A DNA stretch of 64,000 bases from assembly GCF_030704535.1 (NCBI RefSeq), contig NC_081819.1, forward strand, positions 22,912,001-22,976,000, given 5' to 3'. Of this stretch, positions 439 through 53,652 are shown in pieces. The notes under the pieces are model-generated. The model did no database searches. It saw only the letters and a list, made by a program, of their open reading frames with translations, and had not been told where the DNA came from. The first letter of the stretch is position 1; the number at the start of each line of letters is the position of its first letter. The position numbers and the translations under genes are program-made. This stretch comes from Vitis vinifera. Taxonomy: Eukaryota; Streptophyta; Magnoliopsida; Vitales; Vitaceae.

Positions 439-649
439 GACCAAACCCAAGTCACGTTGCAGCTGTCCTAGATTACATAGGACAAATACTTCCCTTCAGA
501 GTGAACCAAAGACACCCACAAGGATACACCAAGATAAAAATCTATATTGACCAAACCCAAGTCATGTTGCAGCTGTCCTAGATTCCATAGGACAAATACT
601 TGCCTTCAAAGTGAACCAAATACACCCAATAAGGATACACCAAGATATA
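439..649 (+). repeat. 110-bp direct tandem repeat, two units
   Basis: Two adjacent units of period 110 bp start at 439 and 549. Both begin GACCAAACCCAAGTCA and end in ACACCAAGATA. A weaker relative of the end of the unit (ACACCCAACAAAGATACACC) lies at 4160-4180. The foldback element at 650 inserted at the end of the second unit. The repeat does not look protein coding and I do not recognise the family. Confidence 0.8.
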
Positions 650-3600
650 GGACTTTTCTCAATAGTACAGCAATTTAAAAAAGTTATGCTTAAATTACTG
701 TACTGGCAGAAGTTATTACAAATATAGGGTAGTTTTTGCCACATAGGAGAGAGGAGAGAGGAAAGAGGAGAGAGGAGAGAGGAGAGAGGGTGAGAGAAGA
801 GAGGAAAAAGGAGAGAGGAGAGAGGGTGAGAGAGAGGAGATAGGAGAGAGGAGAGAAGAGAGAGGGTGACTGTAAAAAAAAAGCAAACTCATCTCTTGAA
901 GAGACGAGTTCCATGAAAGAAGAGAGGAAAGAGGAGAGAGGAGAGAGGGTGAGAGAGAGGAGACAGGAGAGAGGAGAGAGAAGAGAGGGTATGTAAAAAA
1001 AAGCAAACTCGTCTCTTGAAGAGACGAGTTCCATGAAAAAAAATATATATATAATTTTAAAAAAAATATATATATAATTTTAAAAAAATTCTAAACAATT
1101 ATTCAAGGGAACTCGTCTCTTCAAGAGACGAGTTCCATGTAAAAAAATATATATTTTTTAAAAAATATATTTTTTAATTTAAAAAATCCCAAATTTAAAA
1201 AAAAAAAAAAATTTCCAAAAAGGGAACTCGTCTCTTGAAGAGACGAGTTCCATGTAAAAAAAATATATTTTTTATTTTAAAAAATCCCAAATTTAAAAAA
1301 AAAAAAAAAAAATTCCAAAGGGAACTCGTCTCTTGAAGAGACGAGTTCCATGTAAAAAAAAATATATATTTTAAAAAATATATTTTTTATTTTAAAAAAT
1401 CCCAAATTAAAAAAAAAAAAAAAAATTCCAAAGGGAACTCGTCTCTTGAAGAGACGAGTTCCATGTAAAAAAAAATATTTTTTTTAAAAAATATATTTTT
1501 TATTTTAAAAAATCCTAAATTAAAAAAAAATAAAAATCCAAAGGGAACTCGTCTCTTGAAGAGACGAGTTCCATGTAAAAAAAAAAATATTTTTTTAAAA
1601 ATATATATATTAAAAAAAAAATCCCAAATTAAAAAAAAAAAAAAAAACACACAATTCCAAAGGGAACTCGTCTCTTCAAGAGACGAGTTCCATGTAAAAA
1701 AAAAATATTTTTTATTTTAAAAAATCCCAAATTTAAAAAAAAAAAAAAATCCCAAAGGAAACTCGTCTCTTGAAGAGACGAGTTCCATGTAAAAAAAATA
1801 TATTTTTTTAAATATATATATATTAAAAAAAAAATTCCCAAATTAAAAAAAAAAAAAAAAAACACACAATTCCAAAGACGAGTTCCATGTAAAAAAAAAT
1901 ATATTTTTTAAAAAATATATTTTTTATTTTAAAAAATCCCAAATTTAATAAAAAAAAAATAAATTCCAAAGGGAACTCGTCTCTTGAAGAGACGAGTTCC
2001 ATGTAAAAAAAAATATATTTTTTTAAAAATATATATATTAAAAAAAAATCCCAAATTAAAAAAAAAAAAAAACACAATTCCAAAGGGAACTCGTCTCTTG
2101 AAGAGACGAGTTCCATGTAAAAAAAAAAATATTTTTTAAAAAATATATTTTTTATTTTAAAAAATCCCAAATTAAAAAAAAAAAAAAAATTCCAAAGGGA
2201 ACTCGTCTCTTCAAGAGACGAGTTCCATGTAAAAAAAAAAATTATTTTTTTAAAAATATATATATATTAAAAAAAGAAATCCCAAATTAAAAAAAAAAAA
2301 AAAAATTAATTCCAAAGGGAACTCGTCTCTTCAAGAGACGAGTTCCCATGTAAAAAAAAATATTTTTTTAAATATATATATATATTTAAAAAAAAAAAAA
2401 AAAAAAAAACAATTCCTCAAAATTCCTAACAGACGAGTTCTCATCTAAAAAAAAATATTTTTTTTTAAATATAAAATTTCAAGAGACGAGTTCCTTTAGG
2501 AAAAAAAATATATTTTTTAAAAAATATATTTTTTATTTTAAAAAATGCCAAATTTAAAAAAAAAAAAAAAATTTCCAAAGGGAACTCGTCTCTTGAAGAG
2601 ACGAGTTCCATGTAAAAAAAAATATATTTTTTAAAAAATATATTTTTTATTTTAAAAAATCCCAAATTTAAAAAAAAAAAAAAAAATTGCAAAGGGAACT
2701 CGTCTCTTCAAGAGACGAGTTCCCTTTGGATTTTTTTTTTAATTTGGGATTTTTTAAAATAAAAAATATATTTTTTAAAAAAAATATTTTTTTTTACATG
2801 GAACTCGTCTCTTCAAGAGACGAGTTCCCTTTGGAATTTTATTTTATTTTTTTTTAAAATTTGGGATTTTTTAAAATAAAAAATATATTTTTTAAAAAAT
2901 ATTTTTTTTTTACATGGAACTCGTCTCTTCAAGAGATGAGTTCCCTTTGGAATTTTTTTTTTTTTTTTAATTTGGGATTTTTTAAAATAAAAATATATTT
3001 TTTAAAATATATATTTTTTTTCCAAAAGGAACTCGTCTCTTGAAATTTTATATTTAAAAAAAAAATATTTTTTTTTAGATGAGAACTCGTCTGTTAGGAA
3101 TTTTGAGGAATTGTTTTTTTTTTTGAGTTCCCTTTGGAATTAATTTTTTTTTTTTTTTTAATTTGGGATTTTTTTTAATATATATATATTTTTAAAAAAA
3201 TAATTTTTTTTTACATGGAACTCGTCTCTTCAAGAGACGAGTTCCCTTTGGATTTTTTTTTTTTTTTTAATTCGGGATTTTTTAAAATAAAAAATATATT
3301 TTTAAAAAAATATATTTTTTTTTACATGGAACTCGTCTCTTGAAGAGACGAGTTCCCTTTGGAATTGTGTTTTTTTTTTTTTTTTTTTTTAATTTGGGAT
3401 TTTTTTTTTAATATATATATTTTTTAAAAAAAATATTTTTTTTTACATGGAACTCGTCTCTTCAAGAGACGAGTTCCTTTGGAATTTATTTTTGTTTTTT
3501 TTAAATTTGGGATTTTTTTAAAAAAAATATATATTTTTTAAAAAATATATTTATTTTTACATGGAACTCGTCTCTTCACTTTGGAATTGTGTGTTTTTTT

Positions 3601-4050
3601 TTAATTTGGGATTTTAATATATATATTTTTTAAAAAATATATTTTTTTTTACATGGAACTCGTCTCTTGAAGAGACGAGTTCCCTTTGGATTTTTTTTTT
3701 TTAATTTGGGATTTTTTAAAATAAAAATTATATTTTTTAAAAAATATTTTTTTTTTTACATGGAACTCGTCTCTTCAAGAGACGAGACGAGTTTGCTTTT
3801 TTTTTACAGTCACCCTCTCTCCTCTCTCCTCTCTCCTCTTTCCTCTCTTCTCTCTCTCACCCTCTCTCCTCTCTCCTCTCTCCTCTCTCCTCTCTCCTCT
3901 CTTCTCTCACCCTCTCTCCTCTCTCCTCTCTCCTCTTTCCTCTCTCCTCTCTCCTATGTGGCAAAAACTACCCTATATTTGTAATAACTTCTGCCAGTAC
4001 AGTAATTTAAGCATAACTTTTTTAAATTGCTGTACTATTGAGAAAAGTCC
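650..4050. mobile_element. Foldback (Mutator-like) DNA transposon made of palindrome arrays
   Basis: The element has long terminal inverted repeats: bases 650-760 (starting GGACTTTTCTCAATAGTACA) are mirrored at 3950-4050. It is flanked by an exact 10-bp direct repeat, CCAAGATATA, at 640-649 and 4051-4060. Inside each end is a GAGAGAGG-type purine tract (about 748-870 and 918-990, mirrored at about 3810-3955). The interior consists of units of about 100-120 bp, each with an A/T-rich stretch and a palindrome whose 14-nt arms (GGAACTCGTCTCTT and its complement) flank one central base. Unit orientation flips near 2711. The 9-11 bp target duplication and long TIRs fit a non-autonomous Mutator-like element with foldback architecture. 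No transposase gene is present, and the F/K-rich reading frames here are artefacts of the repeats. The exact family is unknown. Confidence 0.85.
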
Positions 4051-4060
4051 CCAAGATATA

Positions 4061-6317: not shown

Positions 6318-8933
6318 TCACCAGTAGCCTCTGCAGGAGCAAGATCCATTCTTGAAATGATGGAAGCGGCTCGAGTCTCTGACTATGATTTCATGTTCAA
6401 TGATTATAGAGATATATGTAAAGGCACTATGGCAATCACCACATGCACGAAGGTTCTTGGTGATGCGAATAGGAGCCCCTGGAGCTGTTGTTAGAATACC
6501 ATAAGCAAGAGCCAACTTCTCACTGTGTTCAGAAAGAAGATCACCTTTCTCCTCATCATCCACATCATGGAGAGCAAACCTATTGTCGGGAACATAGCCG
6601 AGGGCTTTGATGCGTTGCATAAGATCTCTAAGGAGATCATAGATTTGTTGAGACATTGGATGAGACCAGTCTCCTGCAAAAAATGTTGCAGTGCCCTTCC
6701 TCCCTTGGACCCAACTGCAACCTGGTCTCTTCTTGATCCCTGTATTTTTCATCAAATATCTGATCCTAGCCACATCTTTCCAACACCTGGCATTGGCATA
6801 AATGTTTGAGAGTAGGGTATAGGACCCATCATTCCCCGACTCCAACTCTAATAACTGGTTTGCGGCATATTCCCCAAGTTCAACATTTGCATAGACCCTG
6901 CAAGCACTAAGCAATGCTACCCACACTGCTGGGGTTGGTTTCATAGGCATGCCTCTTATGAGTTCCATAGCTTCATCCAAACGACCAGCACGACTCAAGA
7001 GATCAACCATGCAGGCATAGTGTTCTGCTCCAGGAACCACTCCAAAGTCCTTGTTCATGCCATTAAAGTAATTGATCCCCTGATCAACCATCCCAGAATG
7101 GCTGCAAGCATAGAGCACAACTACAAAGGTCACACCATCAGGCACCAGACCCACTTTCTGCATCTCATAAAAAATCTGCAGAGCTTCTTCTCCACGCCCA
7201 TGCATGCCATAGCCTGTCATTAGGGATGTCCAGGAAACACCATTCCTCTGGTGCATGTTGTCAAAAACAACCCGAGCTGCATCAACATCTCCAGATTTGG
7301 AATACATGTCTATAAGGCAATTAGCCACAAATAACATCGCAGACTCAAAACGGTTACGTAATACATAAGCATGAATTTGTCTACCAAATCTTAGTGCACC
7401 CAAACGAGCACACGCCATCAGAGCACAAGATATAGTAAAAGCATTTGGCATTACAAAGTTATCAGGTTGGAGCATCTGGGAGAAAAGTTCTAAGGCTTCG
7501 TTAGCTTCCCCATGCTGGGCATTTCCACCAATCAAGACTGTCCAAGTCACCACACTCCTATCTTTTGGTGGTATCAAATCAAACATTGCTCGTGCAGCTT
7601 TAGGGCTTTTGCACTTGGAATACATATCAATAAGAGCATTAATCACCATCAGATCATCCCCTGGATCATTCTCATCTAGGTTCAGAATCCATTTGATGGC
7701 ATGACAATGAGTTTCCTTCCCATGAAGTAGTGTTCCTGCCAAAGCACAACCTGATAGAAGGGACACAAGGGTAACAACATTAGGCTCTGATCCACAAAGT
7801 CGCATTTGCCGAAACACGTCCAGGGCTTCGAAACCAAGACCCCTCTGAGCATACCCGGCAATCACAGCACTCCAAGTCACTACATTGAGCTCAATCTTCT
7901 CCTCCCGAATCTTCTCAAACAAACCCAGGGCATCATCAAATCTACCAATCTGAGAATACCCAGTAACCATAGCATTCCAAGAAACCACATCCTTAACCTT
8001 CATTCGCTCAAAAACCTTGTTTGCCTCCTCCATCATGCCACACTTTGCATACATATCAACCACAGCATTACCCACGAACACATCCTCAAACAATCCACTC
8101 CGAAGAGCATAACCATGAACCTGCTTGCCCCGCGACCACGCACCCACTGAAGCACAAGCAGGGAGTACATTAACAAGGCTAACAGCATCCGGGCGGATTC
8201 CAAGATCCTCGGTCATTCTCTCAAACATCTTCATCGCCCTAATTGAATCACCACCCTGCATATAAGCTGCCACAATCGAATTCCACGAAACCAAATCTCC
8301 AACTCCCCTCTCCCGCATTTCATCAAACACCTGTCTCGCATTCTCCCAAGCCCCACACCGCCCGTACATCGATACCAACCCATTACCCACAAACACATTC
8401 CACTCAAACCCACTAGCAAACACCACCGCATGCACCGAAGCCCCACATCGAAACGACGGAATCTCCCCACAAGCCTTGAGGACAAAAGGGAAGGTATAAT
8501 GATCCGGCCTCCACCCCAGCCTCTGCATCCGCCGGTAAAGTTGGAGGACATCTTCGAGAAAACCCAGATGCACACTTCGTCTAATCAGCTGATTCCACCA
8601 GAAAACAGTATGTGAAGATGGGTGGAGGCGCCGGAGGACTGACAAGGCTTTGGCGGGGGAGTTGAAGGTGAGGTACATGGAGATGATGTGGGTGGGGTCA
8701 TGGGGTAGGCCTTGGACGAGGAGTTGTTGGTGGATGAGCTCGGCGGACGCTAGGGATTTGCATTGGTGGAAGAGGGTGGAGGTGAGATCAGTGGTTGATG
8801 ACGCAGTGGAGAAGAAGAAGGTGGTGAGGAAGAGAAGTGGAGGCTTTGGCTTTAGGCGTGGCAACGATATTAGCATCGTAGCCGTGGCCGTGGTGGCGGC
8901 AGACTTTAAACTACCAATTAAACCGGTTTGCAT
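6318..8933 (-). CDS. Pentatricopeptide repeat protein, PLS class with E and DYW domains (At5g16860-like)
   Basis: A single uninterrupted 871-aa reading frame, as usual for intronless plant PPR genes. The first 55 residues are rich in S/T/A, L and R/K with few acids, as expected for a mitochondrial or plastid targeting peptide. A PLS series of about 35-residue repeats fills most of the protein (recurring VSWNAMVTGY, LIDMYSKC and similar). The C-terminus has the E/E+ region and a DYW deaminase-like domain: HSEKLALAYG (zinc/catalytic HxE), CGDCH (CxxCH) and the terminal GYW triplet. From memory of that protein, the sequence resembles Arabidopsis At5g16860 along its whole length. DYW proteins act in C-to-U editing of organelle RNA; the target transcript cannot be read from sequence. 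The first ATG (8933) is chosen because it keeps the full transit peptide; a second in-frame ATG lies at codon 20. Confidence 0.95.
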   Translation of the reverse strand: MQTGLIGSLKSAATTATATMLISLPRLKPKPPLLFLTTFFFSTASSTTDLTSTLFHQCKSLASAELIHQQLLVQGLPHDPTHIISMYLTFNSPAKALSVLRRLHPSSHTVFWWNQLIRRSVHLGFLEDVLQLYRRMQRLGWRPDHYTFPFVLKACGEIPSFRCGASVHAVVFASGFEWNVFVGNGLVSMYGRCGAWENARQVFDEMRERGVGDLVSWNSIVAAYMQGGDSIRAMKMFERMTEDLGIRPDAVSLVNVLPACASVGAWSRGKQVHGYALRSGLFEDVFVGNAVVDMYAKCGMMEEANKVFERMKVKDVVSWNAMVTGYSQIGRFDDALGLFEKIREEKIELNVVTWSAVIAGYAQRGLGFEALDVFRQMRLCGSEPNVVTLVSLLSGCALAGTLLHGKETHCHAIKWILNLDENDPGDDLMVINALIDMYSKCKSPKAARAMFDLIPPKDRSVVTWTVLIGGNAQHGEANEALELFSQMLQPDNFVMPNAFTISCALMACARLGALRFGRQIHAYVLRNRFESAMLFVANCLIDMYSKSGDVDAARVVFDNMHQRNGVSWTSLMTGYGMHGRGEEALQIFYEMQKVGLVPDGVTFVVVLYACSHSGMVDQGINYFNGMNKDFGVVPGAEHYACMVDLLSRAGRLDEAMELIRGMPMKPTPAVWVALLSACRVYANVELGEYAANQLLELESGNDGSYTLLSNIYANARCWKDVARIRYLMKNTGIKKRPGCSWVQGRKGTATFFAGDWSHPMSQQIYDLLRDLMQRIKALGYVPDNRFALHDVDDEEKGDLLSEHSEKLALAYGILTTAPGAPIRITKNLRACGDCHSAFTYISIIIEHEIIVRDSSRFHHFKNGSCSCRGYW

Positions 8934-8974
8934 CCGAGCCTAACGGCTCTCTTCATCTTTATTTTTTATTTTTT

Positions 8975-10057: not shown

Positions 10058-13000
10058 CTACAACATGCTGTCTGTCTTGGCTGGCAGACGACGGAAGAAA
10101 TTGATCGGTGCTGAAGGCAACCTGCCCCGGAATCTGGGATGCCTCATGTGATAAAACCCAGCCACCAAAGCCAGCACCTGGAAGGGGGTGATGTACAGAA
10201 CAAGGGCAACAAGAAGACAGAACACCAGAAATATGGTTGTGGCCCGGGGATCTCGCCAGCTTAGCAGAGCCTGGAACCGTTCTCCTTGGGTTGCAACATC
10301 GCCCACTACAGTCTGAATCCTTCCAGCCACACTCCTCAGCCGGTCATACCTCATTCGGACCAACTCTGAGCCCCGGGAGGTTGGAAATGAATCAAACTCC
10401 TCATCAAGCTCATCAGGGTGGACATTGTCAGCATAAGATATTTTTGTGTTCATGTGAGGAGGGTATCTGGGGCGGCCCCGGTAGTTCCAAAGCCCTATCA
10501 TAAACATGTAGAGAAACACTGTTGGCAAGATCAGCTCTGGAAAGCATACCAACATCACAAACAGAACATGTACCAGCCCTGTTGTGATGGGGTTTTTCCA
10601 TGTGCAGACTTCCCCGAACCATTTTCCAACTGCAATTAATCCTGAGAAAACTGACATTAGCCGGAAAAAATTGGCCTTGCTGCGTCTCATGCTCCAGAGA
10701 TGGGAGTCCATATCAGACATGTATTCGATTACTTCCTTCCGAAGAGGGGGTTCTGACCGGCTAAGCCTGGCTGCCACTATGTTGACAGCCTGGTGGCGCA
10801 GCATGTCCTGCTGCATTACAGTGAACGGCTTTATATAGTGCATTTTTGGCAAAAGGGGGCGTGAGTATATCAGCATTGTGTTCATCAAGGATGTGCATGA
10901 AAACCGTATTGCCAGATGCAGCTCACCCATCTTTTTGACACCATTGGGGTGAAGGACCAGAAGCGGGTAAGTGTGAGTATAAACACGACCGGTTTCAAGA
11001 GTAGAAATTCGAATGCGAACCTTCCCAATTTTCAGGTCTCTGTTACCGTTTGAACCCCCAACATGGCAGTTATCAAAAACCCCAATTGTGATAACTGTGG
11101 CTGGATCATAAACCTCCCAAGTGTACTGCTCGTTGTATTTTGGGCTCAAGCTGTTCATTATGGTTCGAGTCCGAACCCATTTCTGACCATACTTTGCTAC
11201 ACAGTATGTGTCTGATGTACCCTTTTGATCCCTTGTTTTCATCGGATGGAGCCCATCAGCATTTAGAATACCCAGCTCCAAGACACCAATTGAGGGGGTC
11301 CGGAGCCAGAGCTGCTTTAGTGAGGGTCGGAGATCACTGCTGTAGTGTGTTGACTCGTCATGCACATGGTAACCTCCCTCAAGGAAAAGACAGAGCCGGA
11401 GTCTACTAGCAAACTTATCTTTCTTATCTTTCTTACTCTGATCCACATCCATGACGTATGCCTTTTCAAGGTGATACCATCGAGAACGATCGATTCGATC
11501 ATCATGTCGAACCTCAGCACGTTTTTCAATGGCGCTCAATGGTATAATGGTCCTCCCAATTGTCTCGTCTTTGTTTGGACCCACACGATCTTCCACTGAA
11601 AGCATCAGGTGATCTTCAAAGGGTTCAGCAACAACAAATATCAAATCTTCATTCCAGAGTGGGTTCAGAGTTCGAGCTTGAGTTGGCTTTGTCTTTAAAA
11701 TCTGATTACCAATTTGAGCCTTCACGTATACATCTGGGAAACGAGTCTTTTCAGTGGTAACCAAGTCTTGCGCCTCAACTATAGTAACTCGGACATACCA
11801 AAGTCTTGGTGAATGGTAAACTTTAGATCGTATATATGAGGAGCCAGCTGCAGAGCTATCATGATGGGAAGCTGCATCTGAATGCCATGCATCAGGAAAA
11901 GCCTCATCAGCTTGTGTGCCATACCATACTGCAAGCATCAGTTCTCCATTATTTTTCTCTCCCTTACTGTTTGCAATCCTATACCATTCTGGGGCCAATG
12001 GACTATCTGGCGGGACCCGAGTGGGAACATCACTGAGATCAAATCGAACAAACCCAACAATATCATCTTTTAACATATCCTTATCCTTGACCACAACTTC
12101 CAGAACAGATGACTGCATCCTGTCCCCAGCAAAAGCAAACACTTCATTCCATTCAGGGTTTTTGTTTTTCTCAAAGTGTTTTGTAATTCCCTTGTAGTTC
12201 CCAACTCTTACTTCAACAAATGGGTCAAGGCTCCCGGTAACATCCTTGGTAGGAAGATCACGGGCTTTCACAACTCGTACAAAAAGGTAATGCATTTGCT
12301 CAACAAGATCATAGGTGCTGGCTGGCTTGTCTGCACGTATAACTCGCCCCCCAACAATCTGTCCCCCTCCAAGGATAGGGCTTGTCTCTTTAAGTTGATA
12401 ATCCAATGGTTGAGAAGCCGAACCTGAGAACATGCGAACAATTCTTGAACCCTGCGGTTCGGCTCTCATCTGATCAGCCCCAAATCTTCCTGGCTCTTGT
12501 GACATGGCTGCAGGGTGTTGTTGTTGTGGGACATTTGTGTTTGGAAGGTGATGAAATGTGTGCCTTGCCTCGGCTTTGTCATTAGAGAATGCGCCCTGGA
12601 CCATGTTCTGGACAATGTTCTGAACTTGTTGGACAGGCCCTTGAGCTTGGGTTCTGTGCGAATCTGTAAGCACAGAGGATTCCATTGCTGGAAGTGGATT
12701 TGAGGATCTTATGGAAGGGTCATCAGTAAGAAAGACTTTAAGACCAAGTTCTCCTTTTACACGCGACAAAATGCCTCGTTTCTCCAAAGGGTAGTGCAAA
12801 ACAGCAGCATCAGAATAGGGGACGAATGATGTCCCAGTGAGCCGAACCTTCCCAAGGAAGGATTTAGAATTGGTGGTCTTTACAAGGTTATAGACCCAGG
12901 CTTCAAGATTGAGATTAGATAGGTTGTTTGGATCAGAAATGTTGAAGTAGAAGCTTTCATTCCAAACTGGATTGAGATCCTTCTCTTTGGTAGTGGTACG

Positions 13001-13114
13001 AAATTTCTGGTTATCGAAGTGGAGCTCCACAAAGGCACTGGCTGAGCCCTGCCCATCTTTAGGCATGAGGTTGTGAGCACTCACAACCTCCACTCCTAGC
13101 TTCAAATTTGACAT
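10058..13114 (-). CDS. Multiple C2 domain and transmembrane region protein (MCTP; FTIP/QUIRKY family)
   Basis: Intronless 1018-aa frame. Domains: C2A about 5-125, a polar linker 140-260, C2B about 275-395 (ARDLPTKDVTGSLDPFVEVR), C2C about 437-550, C2D about 608-720, then the PRT_C region with two membrane segments (about 847-875 and 959-990) at the C-terminus. Aspartates expected for calcium/phospholipid binding are visible in C2B (D..SLDPF, KDKD). Plant MCTPs sit in the ER and at plasmodesmata, tether ER to plasma membrane, and traffic cargo such as FT or homeodomain proteins. Four C2 domains and an N-terminus starting MSNLKLGVEVVSAH suggest the MCTP6-10 group; the exact orthologue is uncertain. 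The start is the only ATG that preserves C2A, just downstream of a leader intron acceptor. Confidence 0.95.
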   Translation of the reverse strand: MSNLKLGVEVVSAHNLMPKDGQGSASAFVELHFDNQKFRTTTKEKDLNPVWNESFYFNISDPNNLSNLNLEAWVYNLVKTTNSKSFLGKVRLTGTSFVPYSDAAVLHYPLEKRGILSRVKGELGLKVFLTDDPSIRSSNPLPAMESSVLTDSHRTQAQGPVQQVQNIVQNMVQGAFSNDKAEARHTFHHLPNTNVPQQQHPAAMSQEPGRFGADQMRAEPQGSRIVRMFSGSASQPLDYQLKETSPILGGGQIVGGRVIRADKPASTYDLVEQMHYLFVRVVKARDLPTKDVTGSLDPFVEVRVGNYKGITKHFEKNKNPEWNEVFAFAGDRMQSSVLEVVVKDKDMLKDDIVGFVRFDLSDVPTRVPPDSPLAPEWYRIANSKGEKNNGELMLAVWYGTQADEAFPDAWHSDAASHHDSSAAGSSYIRSKVYHSPRLWYVRVTIVEAQDLVTTEKTRFPDVYVKAQIGNQILKTKPTQARTLNPLWNEDLIFVVAEPFEDHLMLSVEDRVGPNKDETIGRTIIPLSAIEKRAEVRHDDRIDRSRWYHLEKAYVMDVDQSKKDKKDKFASRLRLCLFLEGGYHVHDESTHYSSDLRPSLKQLWLRTPSIGVLELGILNADGLHPMKTRDQKGTSDTYCVAKYGQKWVRTRTIMNSLSPKYNEQYTWEVYDPATVITIGVFDNCHVGGSNGNRDLKIGKVRIRISTLETGRVYTHTYPLLVLHPNGVKKMGELHLAIRFSCTSLMNTMLIYSRPLLPKMHYIKPFTVMQQDMLRHQAVNIVAARLSRSEPPLRKEVIEYMSDMDSHLWSMRRSKANFFRLMSVFSGLIAVGKWFGEVCTWKNPITTGLVHVLFVMLVCFPELILPTVFLYMFMIGLWNYRGRPRYPPHMNTKISYADNVHPDELDEEFDSFPTSRGSELVRMRYDRLRSVAGRIQTVVGDVATQGERFQALLSWRDPRATTIFLVFCLLVALVLYITPFQVLALVAGFYHMRHPRFRGRLPSAPINFFRRLPAKTDSML

Positions 13115-13854
13115 GGTGTTCTTTTATGTAATCCTCCAAGACTTAGTGAACAAAAACAAGGTATTGTCCTGAAGGAAGGAACAAAGAATTTAGCAACAGT
13201 GGCTTTCTAATAGACAAATAAATGCAATGTCGCAGGAAAAACTGAAGAATCAACGAATGCCCAGTCAATTTTACATTCTCCTCATCCTACTATCACAGAC
13301 AGCATCTCCAAATCTAGGACATTAATGAACCTTCACAAAGTAATATTCAACAGTGATTAACATCACTATAATTCAGAAGATATAAACAAAGACTCCGGAA
13401 ACTAAATTCACTCTATAATCTTAGAAAAACAAATGGGTGTTGTGAACTGGTGGAGACACCAATTTCCTCCAGAATCAACCCTTAAATGACTCTTAAGAGT
13501 TAAAACTTCCTATATATGGAATCAAGCTCATAACATAGAAAAGAATCCAAAAGTAATGAAAGAAACCATTGATTAATTTCCATAGATTCCTACACAAAGG
13601 GAAAGAGAGAATCTAAAAAAGTTCAGATTGAACAAGAGGTAGATTCTGAATAAAAGCCACAAAGCTTTTAGGATATTCTTGAGAAAATTATGGATAAAAA
13701 AGGGGGAAAAAAAAAAAGGCGCTTGATTTTCTCAGCAGCAAAACAGGCATCTAATTCCTCTTGTCATCAACTTCACAGATGAAAAACTAGGACAAAGATA
13801 TGGCTCTGTTTTCCAGGGGCAAAAAAAGGTATTTTCTTACAGCTTCCAAAATAC

Positions 13855-23008: not shown

Positions 23009-25043
23009 TCAAAGATCTCCTCCAACAGTTCCACTTTCTTCCCATGTCTCCACTTGCTTCATCACATGGTCTTTCTTCTCAAGCACATCTTTGAGTTCTG
23101 CAGGATCATAGGGAGGGGGCATGGTACATGGACCCGTATCCGAAGGACTCCTCACCATGCTTTGGATCTTATAATCCTTCTCCAACCCTTTCACAGGGCA
23201 AACCATCGTCTCTGGGCAGAACTCCACAGCCCCTGGAGGCACAGATGGCTTGAATTTAAGCAGCTTTGCATACATGGACAACAGATGGAACATGTAGTCA
23301 TACACAAATTTCATCTTCAGCTTCTCTTGGACGAAGCTGCTCCCCGCCTTCGCTATCTCCTGTGCCTGTTGGGTGGCATCAAGGTTAGAAAATAGAGCAA
23401 GATTACAAGTTTTTCTGACAGAGAAATCAATCTTTCATCACCTTCTCTGTATGGTTATTGCACCATTCAGTGGCAAATTTGATGGATTTGCACATGTCCT
23501 TGAGTTTTAAAGGCCAGTAATGGACCATAGGCTGTAAACTTCTTGTGAAGAAATCATAGTAGTGAGGGTTTGCAAGCAGGGTCACAGAATCACAAGCTAG
23601 AATGTATTTTTCACTGACTGACCATGTAACTCCCTCTGTGTAAATCTTGTATCTGGATCAGTTGGGCCAAAGTGAAAACAGGGGTCATGAGAAAACACAA
23701 AAGGAAAAAAAAAAAACCCGAAAAGTTTCTCCAAATTCAATCACTCACCTATGAGTGCATTGGCTTGCTAAATCTGAACTGTTGAAGCCACTATGAATCT
23801 CTTGACGCCAGTCCTGCAAATCTTGAAGCTATCAGCAACATTCATGTATTTGATCTATTACTGAAAATATTGGGAGAGTCATGAAGATTTGTTACTATGT
23901 CATAAATCCGAGCATTCCAGTCTTGTTCACTGGTTTTATTGCATTTGGAAAGCTCATGTCTGGCCAGACCCAGATTGATGTTGCCTTTCCAATAAGCATA
24001 GGGTTCTCTGTCTATCCACTCGGTTCTGTTGTTGCCCTCTTTCAGGTCCTTTTTCAAGGTATTCCATTGTTTTATGTGGATCTCTGGCCTGCACAACCAA
24101 ATATGAGATGGCCTGATCTTTAAAAAAACATCACAAGAGAATCGTAGAAGGCTTACCAACCCCAAAATGACCAGTCCGGGAACACAATATCATATGTTTC
24201 ATCATCTCCACAGTAATGAAACAATGGGGGTGGAGTAGTGGCATTTGGCCCTTGGAAGTATCGTGTCTTCATCGCCAGTTTGTCCCCGCATGAAAACATC
24301 AAATCGAAGTCCGGCAGCTTCCCAGGATACATCCTCAGCAACTGCAGAATGCCCCATATGGTGAACACATCTCTAGTTTGATAGACCCCCTTGTACTTCT
24401 CCATATAAACTTTGCCATCCACCACCACAACCCTGATATATGCTGCAGGTTTTGCTCTTTCCACCATGTCCCTCGTGATCCCCGTCTCCCTCCACGGCCT
24501 CAGATCTTCATATATCCACCGGAAGTATTCTGGGCAGGTCTCAGTGGACGGTTCACTGGGCTCAAATGTCGCCAGTGGAGTGACTGGGCAGGTCTGTGCC
24601 ATGTTTCCCTCACTGCAATTCAGTGAATACTCAATTTTTTTATTACAAGGCTTTATTGAACTGCTATGACTCCAAACTTTCCTAAAGGAATCTCCTGTAA
24701 AAACAGACTGGAAAAACAGTACTTAGAATCAGAAAAACTGAAAATATTTCCATGAACTTTGCATGAAAAAACATATGTATTTAACAAACATATAAACATA
24801 AGAACAAGAAGGAGAAAACATCATGGGTCGAACGGAGAAAGAAATATGCAGATGACAGGAGCAGCTTACAACATTGCTCCACCGGGTGGAAATGAAAGCT
24901 CCAATGAAGAGGATGATGGAGAAGAGAGAAACAGTCATGGTAGCACCTTTTATGAAGGGAGAAGCCAAACCTGCTCCATGAAATTCATTATGAGCATTCT
25001 CTCCCATATGGGAAAATTTCTCATTACCAACAACCTCCCCCAT
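23009..25043 (-). CDS. Rumi-like O-glucosyltransferase (CAP10/DUF821, GT90), copy 1
   Basis: Six exons on the minus strand: 25043-24870, 24707-24157, 24088-23896, 23813-23749, 23652-23442 and 23365-23009, joined in phases 0,2,0,2,0, giving 516 aa without a stop. Residues 35-53 form one membrane segment after a short N-terminus, so a type II Golgi/ER protein is expected. The CAP10 domain starts at about residue 116 (CPEYFRWIYEDLRPW) and includes LPDFDLMF, PDWSFWGWPE, REPYAYWKGN and WSVSEKYILACDS. Animal Rumi/POGLUT1 adds O-glucose to EGF repeats; plant DUF821 proteins have no settled substrate, so cell-wall or glycoprotein glycosylation is inference. The ATG at 25043 has GCA before and G after (favourable). 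In copies 1-3 the codons just upstream are conserved but contain no ATG. Confidence 0.92.
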
Positions 25044-49922: not shown

Positions 49923-52900
49923 AATGGATCAAAGTAATACAATTTATTGTTATCTGCACATTGGAGGAGAGCTAGTAAGGGATGAACATGACAATGTGGA
50001 ATATATGGGTGGGAGACGAGAGGGTCTAAGTTTAGAATGATCAATGACATATAATGATTTTGTTTCAAGGATTTGTGGGAAAATGAACATCAATATAGTG
50101 GGACCAACATTTTCATATACTCTCCCGTTTGATTTATATGCACTTTGTTAACCCAAGGGTTCTCCTAATCGGGTTTTGATGATAACAAACCATGGTTAAG
50201 TAACTAATTGGTTTAATGTTTAAGAATCTCAAGTATAAACTCGAAAATTCATTAAAGGACCAAATGGATACAAGATCGAGACGCTTGGAAGACTTGAGAT
50301 CATAGGAAATGAATGTAAGATGATAGCATGAGTGCACTTAGGATGTTCATACCTTTTTATACATCTTAGAAAACTCGGTTTATTCTTTAAAACTTGATTT
50401 TCTTTAAAACCCGAGTTTTATCAAACATACCTTAGGCAAATTGATTCAAAAGTGGCATATTAACTCACCTAAAGACCTTGCCTAAGTATTGGAAAAGAAA
50501 GAAATAAAAAAGGATAGGTTTTCGGGGCCAAAAGGCTCAACCGGTTGAGGCTAAGGCCAACCGGTCAACCGGTTGAGTAACCGGTCGACCGGCTGAGGTC
50601 GTCCGATTGAGGACCGGTCGAGGAAGGTTAAAAACCTTATCTCTCTCCCAGTAGCCTTTTCTTCCCGGTCGAGGTCCGGTCGAGGCAACGGTAACCTGTC
50701 ATACATTAAATGCTCCAACAGCTAGTGAATCGGTTGACCCCTAGCTCGACCGGACGAGGTTGTCTTTTGCTGTTTTTGAATGCAATTGTTCTCTTAGTCA
50801 TAAATGAAGTGGAGCTCTCAATTTATAGGTTTCTAAGCTCGGGAGTCAAAAACAGCAAAAGGCAACCTCGTCCGGTCGAGGTCTGGTCGAGACAACGGTA
50901 ACCTGTCATACATTAAATGCTCCAACAGCCAGTGAACCGGTCGACCCCTAGCTCGACTGGACGAGGTTGCCTTTTGCTGTTTTTGACTCCCGAGCTTAGA
51001 AACCTATAAATTGAGAGCTCCACTTCATTTATGACTAAGAGAACAATTGCATTCAAAGCCTACCTATCTGTTCTTGATCAAAAAGCTCTCATTTCTTTCT
51101 TAGTGCATTAAAACCATCACTTGCATATTCTTAGTGCACTCTTGTAAATCATCCTAGCTTTCTCTTGTACTTGAGTCATCCTTAAACTAGGTTGAGAGTT
51201 TCATCTTTGTGTAAACTGAGTGTGAAAGCCTTCAAGTGGTTCAAATCTTGAAGAGATTGTGTAAGAGCCCATTGGAGCCGGAATCCAAGTGTAAGAAGAT
51301 TGAAAGCTTGATTGAAGCTCAAGATTAGTGGAACCCTCACTCGGTTAGGAGATTGAGGAGAGTGGACGTAGGTAAGGAAGTTCCGAACCACTATAAACCC
51401 GAGTTTGAGTTCTCTAACTTTATCTCTTTCCTTTATTTATTTTGTGCATATATTATTCTGTGGAAAAAGATTTTGAAAAACTCAATTCACCCCCCCTTTT
51501 GGGTATTTTCCTTAATTATTCATAGCCTTTGTTTTATCACACTTCAACCATTGAAAAATGATGAAGACTTGAGAAACATGTTTCAATTTAGTGATCGATG
51601 TGCATGTGTATATATATGTTTAGCATCAACAGTTGAAGACGATGAAATGATTGAGAATGGAGGACAAAGGTAAGTTATATCAAAAAAATATATAATCTTA
51701 AATGATTCCATGTATTTATTTATTTTGCAATATTTATGTTTATTCATTAGATGTTATAATGCAGCTTGAACGAAACAAACGTATGGTCTAACTCATCGGT
51801 CCCATATTCAACAAGAGATGTTGATATTAGAATGCAATCACGAGGATTTCATCAAAGATGTGCTGAATCACATATTGGTCCACTAGAGTCAAGTCGTTTT
51901 GAGAGTGCAATATTGGGTAGTGGGCATACCTTCTCAATTGGAAATGAATTTCAGGATGCAATATATCTCATGTCAGTAGAAGGCCATTTTAGATATAAGT
52001 TTAAGAGAAATTGTCTTAAGCATATGACTGCAATATGTGTTGTTGAAGGATGTCATTGGAAAGTAACTGCTCATGTTGTTGGGAGAACAAAAATAGTTCA
52101 AGTGTATACATTTAGAAATGAACATAACCACTCTTTAGAAGATGTGTCAATTTTCGAACCAGCAATTCGTTGTAATTGAGCCACAACTATGATTGATGAT
52201 GTTATTCATTCAAATTCAGATTACTTACCCTGTCAAATATGTAAAGACTTTCGTCAACAATACGGAATGCAATTGAATTATTGTCAAGCATGGAACTTGA
52301 AAGAGAAGGCTAAAGAACGAATTCATGGTGTGCCGCAATGTTCATATAAGTTGTTACCTTGGTTGTGTACAAGGCTTATTGAAACAAATCCAGGGACGAT
52401 TGTTGAATATAGATGTTCGGATGATGGTCATTTTATGCAATTGTTTGTAGCCCTTTCAGTGTCAATACATGGGTTTCAAATGGGATGTTGGCCTATTATA
52501 TCAATAGATTCATCCCACATGAGTGGGCCATACAAGGGTGCTTTATTTTCAGCTTCTTCCTATGATGCTGACAATGGCATGTTTCCACTTGCTTATGACT
52601 TATTTAGCTCTAAGAATTACGAGGATTGGCTTTGGTTCTTAGAGAAATTAAAGATGGTCATAGGTGAAAGAGATGTTATAATAATATTTGATAGGCACCA
52701 AGGGATTATTCATAGTGTTTCAGAGGTATTTGGTAGTGAAAACCATGCACATTGCTATCGTCACATTAAAGAAAACTTCAGTAGCTTTCTAACAAAGCTG
52801 AACACTAAAGGGAGGAAAGTAAAGGAAAATGCTTTGCAAATGCTTGATTCTATCGCCTATGCTAGGTTAGATTGTGATTATGAGGTTGCAATGGATACTT

Positions 52901-53652
52901 TAAGGACATTTAATCATGATTTGGCGAAGTGGGTTAAAGAAAATAACCCTCAACATTGGGCAATCTCTAAATTTAAGAAGATGCGTTGGGATAAGATGAC
53001 AAGTAATTTGGCCGAGTCTTTCAATTCTTGGTTAAGACATGAACAACACCATAACATTTGTGTTTTCTTCATCGAGCATATGGATAAGTTAGGATCTCTT
53101 TTAGTCGAGCATAAAAATGGACTTGTAAAATGGAATGGGTGTATTGGTCCTAAAATAGAAGAAAAGATTGCATTGAACATTGGAAAAAGTGAAAATTATA
53201 TCACTTATTTACACTTGGGTAGTTCGATGAAAGAATCCAATGGAAAAGCATTCCTGGAAGTGGACTTAATGGAGCGAACTTGCACATGTAAAGCATGGCA
53301 AATGTTTGGAATCCAATGTGATCATGCTTGTGTAGTTATACGGTGAATGGGGTTTGATGTATCTGATTATGTTGATGACTGGTATAAGTACAATTTGCAA
53401 GAGAAGATATACTCTGGAAGCATGCGTACTTTGGTAACGTATGACATGCCAATGATTGATAAAGATGGAACCGTTCGTGATGCCTTGGGTCATACTTATC
53501 CCTTTCTTAATCCTCCAACCACAAAGCGACCTCTTGGAAGACCTAGGAAATGTCGAATCGAGTCTTAATTCATGTAAAAAAAAACGGTTCATTGTTCTCG
53601 TTGTAATTAGCCTGGGCATAATCGTGCGACATGTAACAACCCATTGCTGTAA
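49923..53652 (+). pseudogene. MuDR-type MULE transposase, interrupted
   Basis: The first exon begins at ATG 49923 (MDQSNTIYCY, then YMGGRREGLSLE) and runs up to the nested LTR at 50146; coding sequence resumes after 51544 (LKNDEDLRNMF) and ends at a donor at 51671. An intron 51672-51763 precedes the main exon. That exon shows the MuDR N-terminal domain (51766-52170), the MULE DDE domain with IISIDSSHMSGPYKG and VIIIFDRHQG, and a SWIM zinc finger (CTCKAWQMFGIQCDHA). An AT-hook-like KRPLGRPRK and a CCHC knuckle (CSRCN..GHNRATC) follow. The frame is otherwise continuous, but in-frame stops occur at 50038, 52177, 53344, 53566, 53575 and about 53614. The first four alone make it non-functional; several fit C-to-T change of CGA/TGG codons, as expected of methylated transposon DNA. 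Confidence 0.88.
50146..51539 (+). mobile_element. Solo LTR, probably Ty1/copia (Maximus/SIRE-like), nested in the MULE
   Basis: It starts TGTTAACC and ends TTTATCA, with an exact 5-bp target duplication CACTT at 50141-50145 and 51540-51544. The interior carries CCGGTCGACC-type repeats near 50520-50960 and, toward the end, the AAGTGGTTCAAATCTTGAAG...AACCACTATAAACC blocks that I associate with long copia LTRs. A large internal inverted repeat lies at about 50740-51060. No coding region is present. The intact duplication makes it the youngest of the three nested insertions. It interrupts the first exon of the MULE transposase. Family assignment is tentative. Confidence 0.8.

What the first reader, a model, noticed from the sequence alone, without database searches (positions are those of the whole stretch)
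650..4050. Foldback transposon whose arms are arrays of palindromes, bounded by a 10-bp target duplication
The outer 100 bp are perfect-looking mirrored TIRs, and CCAAGATATA flanks both sides exactly, so this is a real transposition unit and not random low-complexity DNA. The interior is made of repeated palindromes in two opposed arrays meeting near 2711. A transcript through it would fold into a hairpin more than 1 kb long with many side hairpins. I do not know a named family with this design; Mutator-like ends with Foldback-type interior is my inference.
Basis: partly seen in the sequence, partly recalled or inferred. Interest (0 to 1): 0.8.

Follow-up and report, generated by a model that had tools for sequence, protein, structure and literature searches.

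The report
Grapevine foldback Mutator transposon with palindromes
This is a real jumping gene that cannot move by itself: a stripped-down member of a plant Mutator-type transposon family whose two long mirrored arms are built from many copies of one 29-letter palindrome, and the middle letter of that palindrome flips in place, which may make it a natural record of a particular DNA-copying error.

Summary
A 3,401-bp element (650-4050) lies between exact 10-bp duplications, with 156 bp of identical inverted ends and two opposed palindrome arrays meeting at 2709. At least 19 other places in the same genome (grapevine by size, inferred) have both ends. Of 19 copies examined, this one included, 8 have perfect 10-bp duplications, each different, and 4 have 1-2 mismatches. 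Three long copies also carry a MULE transposase and plant-mobile-domain genes; one, 14 kb, has a perfect duplication. Not found in my text searches: arms built of a 29-bp palindrome (1,130 perfect copies genome-wide) whose central base is almost always G or C (A/T in 19 of 1,130) and differs between related units far more often than spacers do. A neighbouring asymmetric mutation is always coupled to the centre (28 of 28), as in-place inversion predicts. I attribute this to spacer inversion by template switching (inferred; gene conversion is a rival). Whether the palindromes also bind a protein is open. New variant of a known kind.

The parts
640..649 (+). left copy of the 10-bp target-site duplication CCAAGATATA
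   Evidence: exact match; only 2 in the window
650..805 (+). left terminal inverted repeat, 156 bp identical to the right end
745..988 (+). GA-rich 7-bp-period stretches inside the left end, interrupted by the first palindrome
   Evidence: TRF rows 745-865 and 921-988
884..2694 (+). left arm: 14 near-complete palindromic units plus truncated ones; outer flank mostly CCAAAG, inner flank mostly ATGTAAAA; neighbours mostly 95-120 bp apart
2695..2723 (.). central palindrome with the outer-type flank on both sides (axis of symmetry 2709)
2800..3790 (-). right arm: opposed array of 7 near-complete palindromic units plus truncated ones
3814..3955 (-). CT-rich 7-bp-period stretch, mirror of the GA-rich stretch
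   Evidence: TRF
3895..4050 (-). right terminal inverted repeat, 156 bp identical to the left end
4051..4060 (+). right copy of the target-site duplication CCAAGATATA
439..551 (+). tandem sister copy of the left flank that carries the target without an insert (related empty site)

Best explanation
The element is a non-autonomous, foldback-type member of a Mutator-like (MULE) DNA transposon family. Full copies carry a MURA-type transposase gene and a convergently oriented plant-mobile-domain (PMD) gene with palindrome arrays outside and between them. The window copy has no such genes and its arms meet at one palindrome; it would be moved in trans by the family transposase acting on the ends and making 10-bp duplications (ends, duplications and genes are shown; the movement is inferred). 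The arms gain and lose units (shown as numbers from 1 to 56 per arm). The palindromic cores invert in place, flipping the central base G<->C without turning their flanks, most simply by polymerase switching to the complementary strand inside one half of the palindrome and back in the other (at least one inversion is well supported by the sequence; template switching as its cause is inferred).
For: Family and transposition: copies; perfect 10-bp duplication in 8 of 19 copies, 1 mismatch in 3, 2 mismatches in 1, 3 or more in 7; related empty site. Coding copies: same 860-aa frame in three long copies, split in one; frame of the 21-kb copy: MULE 3.2e-18, DBD_Tnp_Mut 4.1e-11, SWIM 5.8e-9; frames of the 14-kb copy: PMD 3.6e-55 and 1.7e-23; 58 transposase matches, 53 of 1,190 candidates scored; two about 100% identical without a stop. 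In-place inversion: central base G 287, C 300, A/T 0 of 587 palindromes in 19 copies; genome-wide 19 of 1,130 perfect palindromes have A/T. In 132 alignments of like arms (12 of the 19 copies) the centre differs at 224 of 798, all C/G, other non-CpG palindrome sites (positions 3-27) at 65 of 15,926, spacers at 1,491 of 74,158. In 83 disjoint pairs with near-identical flanks the centre differs in 9 and the other palindrome sites in 37 of 2,324 (Fisher p 1.7e-5). A neighbouring asymmetric mutation is coupled to the centre in 28 of 28 cases, ACA 12 and TGT 16, AGA and TCT 0. The marker segment X keeps the orientation of its arm in 52 of 52 hits.
Against: No observed transposition and no allelic empty site; a second rejoined-flank search gave nothing convincing. 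Arm homogenisation, the other signature of template switching, was hardly seen: at palindrome positions 3-14 there is 1 paired change against 117 one-sided and 5 double unpaired changes; at the edge position 2, 5 paired against 113 one-sided. The 28 coupled cases may descend from few events. The arm pairs are not independent and non-orthologous units may be aligned, which inflates the centre difference; with identical 120-base flanks the centre differs in only 1 of 26 pairs. Three short copies (2.4-2.6 kb) have no X and show mixed unit orientations, so fixed orientation is not general. A centre with outer flanks on both sides was seen clearly only in the window copy; other gene-less copies have other centres. 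The 14-kb coding copy has only one palindrome left in its right arm.
Confidence: 0.86

Rival explanations
1. Central G/C variants are two old unit types shuffled by unequal exchange, with no inversion at all.
For: Units are gained and lost in bulk; arm alignments can pair non-orthologous units; with identical flanks the centre differs in only 1 of 26 pairs.
Against: Flank-matched disjoint pairs still differ at the centre in 9 of 83. The asymmetric mutation switches sides together with the centre inside same-orientation flanks. A/T centres, which point mutation would be expected to give, are rare (19 of 1,130).
Confidence: 0.15
2. Palindromes flip by gene conversion between units paired in the inverted register (left arm with right arm, or neighbours), not by replication template switching.
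For: Perfect units are homologous to one another in both orientations; orientation of the longer marker X is not changed in 52 of 52 hits, as short conversion tracts would give.
Against: Conversion should also carry flanking spacer bases now and then; not tested.
Confidence: 0.35
3. The element is assembled low-complexity or segmental DNA rather than a transposon.
For: The interior is AT-rich and repetitive, and short chance repeats abound.
Against: Eight different perfect 10-bp duplications, conserved ends, and coding copies.
Confidence: 0.01
4. The palindromes are maintained because a dimeric element-encoded protein binds them, as VANC proteins bind repeated motifs in VANDAL MULEs. This does not exclude the best explanation.
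For: Non-CpG palindrome sites differ five-fold less than spacers (0.41% against 2.0%); palindromes also lie between the two genes of the three long copies; [quoted passage not shown]
Against: Conversion among many identical cores could give the same conservation; no binding data; no VANC-like protein was looked for.
Confidence: 0.25

Closest known systems
Tm1 Mutator/Foldback family of root-knot nematodes (PMC3169594; passages read)
   Same: MULE-type family with composite inverted repeats of variable length made of tandem units; coding and gene-less members
   Different: 13-15-bp units (no palindromic unit in the passages read), most often 9-bp duplications, Phantom-type transposase; here 29-bp palindromes about 115 bp apart, 10-bp duplications, PMD gene
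Grapevine Mutavine MULE families (PMC2528002; passages and section 8 read)
   Same: MuDR-like MULEs of Vitis, some with long inverted ends and lengths of 16-18 kb
   Different: Duplications reported as always 9 nt where found; the words foldback, palindrom- and tandem do not occur in the main text.
MuTAnT MULEs of Medicago (PMC4486113; first of four parts read)
   Same: Foldback-shaped non-autonomous MULEs with a related coding copy; the window copy also sits beside a TA run
   Different: 90% are 200-300 bp, 144-bp arms in the type copy, TA-repeat targets; the other seven perfect duplications here are not TA repeats
VANDAL MULEs and VANC target repeats of Arabidopsis (PMC5735166; passages read)
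   Same: Short motifs amplified in non-coding regions of a MULE with an extra gene
   Different: The 9-base motif is not a long palindrome; the extra protein is VANC, not PMD
PMD-carrying MULEs (PMC5418596; passages read)
   Same: MULE with a plant mobile domain
   Different: There described as fusions with transposase in several grasses and Amborella; here separate, convergent frames
Drosophila FB and Tetris; plant FARE, SoFT, Tnr8 (FARE paper not held; Tetris seen in a search listing only; titles on FB, FARE, Tnr8 and plant foldbacks seen in a reference list; rest recalled)
   Same: Foldback arms of tandem units (recalled)
   Different: Palindromic units not recalled for any of them; not checked

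Membership tests
Mutator-like elements (MULE) | transposase with MULE and DBD_Tnp_Mut domains in coding copies with the same ends | tested here: met
   on the 860-aa frame of one copy; searches place the same frame between the same ends in three copies
Mutator-like elements (MULE) | target duplication of about 8-11 bp (range recalled) | tested here: met
   10 bp perfect in 8 of 19 copies; 9 nt is typical for plant MULEs according to PMC2528002
Mutator-like elements (MULE) | long terminal inverted repeats | tested here: met
   156 bp exact in the window copy; 0 to 167 bp exact in the 19 copies, the 0 being a copy with a truncated right end
Mutator-like elements (MULE) | transposase acts on these ends | not testable with these tools
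   needs a transposition assay
Foldback-type elements | most of the element is two long inverted arms of internal tandem units | tested here: met
VANDAL/VANC-type anti-silencing targets | an element protein binds the repeated motif | not testable with these tools
   no binding data
VANDAL/VANC-type anti-silencing targets | a VANC-like gene in coding copies | not tested
   Pfam gave PMD for two frames and nothing for the third in the 14-kb copy; VANC itself was not searched for
Published Mutavine family of grapevine | sequence identity to a listed representative | not testable with these tools
   Repbase and the listed accessions are not on hand

The most novel reading that the evidence does not exclude
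The palindrome arrays are amplified binding sites for a dimeric protein of the element (PMD protein or transposase), an independently evolved counterpart of the VANC anti-silencing arrays. Gene-less foldback copies keep them to share or drain that protein, and the palindromic form lets cores invert freely without losing the site.
Probability: 0.22. Interest if true: 0.75.

Novelty: new variant of a known kind. Interest (0 to 1): 0.52.

Why it matters
More than a thousand palindromes that are identical except for a one-base centre act as a built-in reporter of in-place inversion in a plant genome. The rate of such events, and whether single and arrayed palindromes differ, could be read from existing long-read assemblies. 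The family also has coding copies with transposases about 100% identical, which link gene-less foldback elements to their likely source, and it pairs a transposase with PMD frames and a motif array, a set-up that invites a test of anti-silencing.

Tried and rejected
Rejected: the neighbouring MULE at 51.7-53.7 kb as the source of the element. Its transposase is only 30% identical to that of the family, and the first 21 bases of the family end were not found elsewhere in the window with up to 4 changes.

Rejected: microRNA precursors. All 13 Rfam matches and all 17 lie below their gathering scores; the five alignments shown run through AT-rich and self-complementary sequence.

Led nowhere: exact scans for the end and the palindrome in viral contigs and for the palindrome in genome contigs, 0 matches each; the end against plasmids, no match. 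Text searches for the palindrome letters found one similar listed Brassica small RNA (PMC3936892, one passage read), not followed further. A rejoined-flank search for the C18 copy at 8214706 gave, besides its own flanks, 13 partial matches; one of 79 bases at 77% identity reaches 7 bases past the target and was judged too weak for an empty site. The FARE paper is not held.

Considered and not adopted: an origin of the mirrored arms at 2709 by snap-back in this copy. X markers lie in both arms of 11 of 19 copies, so mirrored arms are probably older than the window copy, and loss of the core by exchange between a left and a right palindrome is simpler; neither is proved. Searches that bear on 'not found in print': (seven of the ten text searches; 68, 69 and 81 asked other questions). 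For listed papers I saw titles and abstract starts; passages or sections only where said in Closest known systems.

Full report
WHAT IS THERE. The element spans 650-4050 of the window (3,401 bp). It is flanked by CCAAGATATA at 640-649 and 4051-4060, the only two occurrences in 64 kb. The two ends are identical in inverted orientation for 156 bp. The interior is two opposed arrays of a 29-bp palindrome, GGAACTCGTCTCTT-S-AAGAGACGAGTTCC (S = G or C), neighbours mostly 95-120 bp apart with A/T-rich spacers; 22 near-complete copies were counted, 17 perfect. In the left arm most palindromes have an outer flank ending CCAAAG and an inner flank ATGTAAAA; in the right arm the order is reversed. At the axis, base 2709, one palindrome carries the outer flank on both sides. 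The arms align with 1191 matches and 30 mismatches in aligned columns, with large gaps. No stop-to-stop frame of 150 aa or more lies in this copy; shorter ones are low-complexity by eye and were not scanned.

SAME-GENOME COPIES. The window lies in a 495.6-Mb genome of 21 contigs. The published grapevine T2T assembly has 494,873,210 bp, 19 chromosomes and a longest one of 36,684,271 bp (PMC10199708, passages read); contig C18 here is 36,670,000. That this is grapevine is an inference. The 251-bp end gave 72 matches, with 40 of 334 candidates scored, and the 97-bp end 40 matches, with 40 of 320 scored; 20 places, the window's included, have both ends in opposite orientation, paired by hand from these two lists. 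I took 19 of the 20. Ten-base duplications are perfect in 8 of 19, have 1 mismatch in 3, 2 mismatches in 1, and 3 or more in 7 (among the 7 are one with a truncated right end and one whose right flank repeats part of an end). The perfect ones differ in sequence. In the window itself, a tandem sister of the left flank (439-551) carries the target uninterrupted and aligns across the rejoined flanks; the match past the target is only about 14 columns, so this is modest support. The same test for one other copy gave nothing convincing.

CODING COPIES. Three long copies (14.1, 21.0 and 22.0 kb) contain the same frames. The 860-aa frame of the 21.0-kb copy matches MULE (3.2e-18), DBD_Tnp_Mut (4.1e-11) and SWIM (5.8e-9); two frames of the 14.1-kb copy match plant mobile domain (3.6e-55, 1.7e-23) and a third has no Pfam match; an 8.7-kb copy keeps a PMD frame only (3.6e-52). 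Transposase and PMD frames are convergent, with a further group of palindromes between them in all three. Palindrome arrays lie outside the genes on both sides in two of the three; in the 14.1-kb copy the right arm is down to one palindrome. That copy has a perfect 10-bp duplication; the other two do not (3 and 7 mismatches). The transposase query has 58 matches (53 of 1,190 candidates scored); 53 of the 58 have stops inside. The five without are the two about 100% identical copies, one 64% identical copy and two partial matches; a third about 100% identical copy has one stop. The coding copies are the likely source of movement for the gene-less ones; that is inferred from shared ends.

HOW THE ARMS EVOLVE. 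Unit number ranges from 1 to 56 per arm, leaving aside one copy with a withheld stretch. A 90-bp marker, X (hits of at least 70 bases and 90% identity), occurs in 15 of 19 copies, 26 times pointing right and 26 times pointing left, and in every copy all right-pointing ones lie left of all left-pointing ones. So these long segments are duplicated or lost but not turned round. The short copies L065-L067 lack X and show mixed unit orientations, and the groups between the genes are mixed too. The gene-less copies have differing centres. The window copy's centre is what exchange between a left and a right palindrome, which are direct as well as inverted repeats of each other, would leave after loss of the core. 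That is one possible route, seen clearly in one copy only.

THE FLIPPING CENTRE. In 587 palindromes of 19 copies (up to 5 changes allowed) the central base is C 300 times, G 287 times, A or T never; read in unit orientation it is G 363, C 205, with 19 of unclear orientation. Genome-wide 1,130 perfect palindromes were found, with 0 for the reversed control, and 19 of them have A/T at the centre. In 132 alignments of like arms of 12 of the 19 copies, counting ungapped blocks of 25 or more, the centre differs at 224 of 798 aligned sites, all C against G; spacers differ at 1,491 of 74,158, of which 37 are C/G; palindrome CpG sites at 91 of 3,178; the other palindrome sites (positions 3-27) at 65 of 15,926. 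These pairs are not independent. In 83 non-overlapping pairs with at most 3 differences in 120 flanking bases, the centre differs 9 times, the other 28 sites 37 of 2,324 and the flanks 104 of 9,960, the last being low by selection (Fisher p 1.7e-5 against other palindrome sites, 3.4e-7 against flanks). Among pairs with identical flanks it differs in 1 of 26. One pair has cores TACAA and TTGTA, exact reverse complements, inside flanks of the same orientation. Over all copies this asymmetric mutation is seen as ACA 12 times and TGT 16 times, AGA and TCT never; in unit orientation 25 and 3. Independent point mutation of the centre would break this coupling; inversion of the core keeps it. The 28 cases may be few events copied. 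Spacer inversion by intermolecular template switching is described for short inverted repeats with arms above 9 bp in yeast (PMC8604942, abstract and passages read). Its companion, homogenisation of arms, is hardly seen here: 1 paired against 117 one-sided and 5 double unpaired changes at positions 3-14, and 5 paired against 113 one-sided at position 2. Gene conversion in the inverted register remains a rival.

WHAT THE PALINDROMES MAY DO. Outside CpG, palindrome sites vary five-fold less than spacers. Constraint by a bound dimer would explain it, and so would conversion among many identical cores. [quoted passage not shown] this is a resemblance, not a test. A transcript of the whole element is predicted to be 84% paired at -1896 kcal/mol, with 0 of 17 perfect palindromes as local hairpins; it could be a source of double-stranded RNA, untested.

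COMPARISON AND NOVELTY. MULE membership is met on domains of coding copies, duplication length and ends; foldback structure is met. Mutator/foldback elements are known (Tm1, PMC3169594; MuTAnT, PMC4486113). Grapevine MULEs were catalogued with 9-nt duplications where found, and the words foldback, palindrom- and tandem do not occur in that main text (PMC2528002); the present family may be among them under a Repbase name. PMD in MULEs is known (PMC5418596). What I did not find in the seven text searches that bear on it is a MULE whose arms are arrays of long palindromes, or the inverting centre. I rate it a new variant of a known kind.

Noticed in passing
window 51760-53346 (+): Remnant of a second MULE transposase (DBD_Tnp_Mut, MULE, SWIM), 30% identical to the transposase of the foldback family; its ends were not identified.
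   Followed up: partly
window 23009-44951 (-): Repeated reading frames that look by eye like a tandem cluster of glycosyltransferase family 90 genes; one frame (24153-24722) was tested and matched PF05686.
   Followed up: partly
window 50775-51057: Short inverted repeat, 106-nt arms 99% complementary with 71 nt between; no duplication looked for.
   Followed up: no
window 6318-8939 (-) and 10058-13123 (-): Uninterrupted frames of a PPR-DYW gene (873 aa) and a C2-domain gene with the PRT_C domain (1,021 aa).
   Followed up: no
window 439-628: Two copies of at least 80 bp, 110 bp apart and 94% identical, beside the insertion; the upstream one serves as the related empty site.
   Followed up: yes
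L010-L011 (copy C10:8375229-8389571): This copy holds a 1,493-aa reading frame not seen in the other fetched copies, probably a nested insertion; not identified.
   Followed up: no
L065, L066, L067: Three short copies (2.4-2.6 kb) lack the marker X and show mixed unit orientations, probably an older or separate subfamily; all three have perfect 10-bp duplications.
   Followed up: partly
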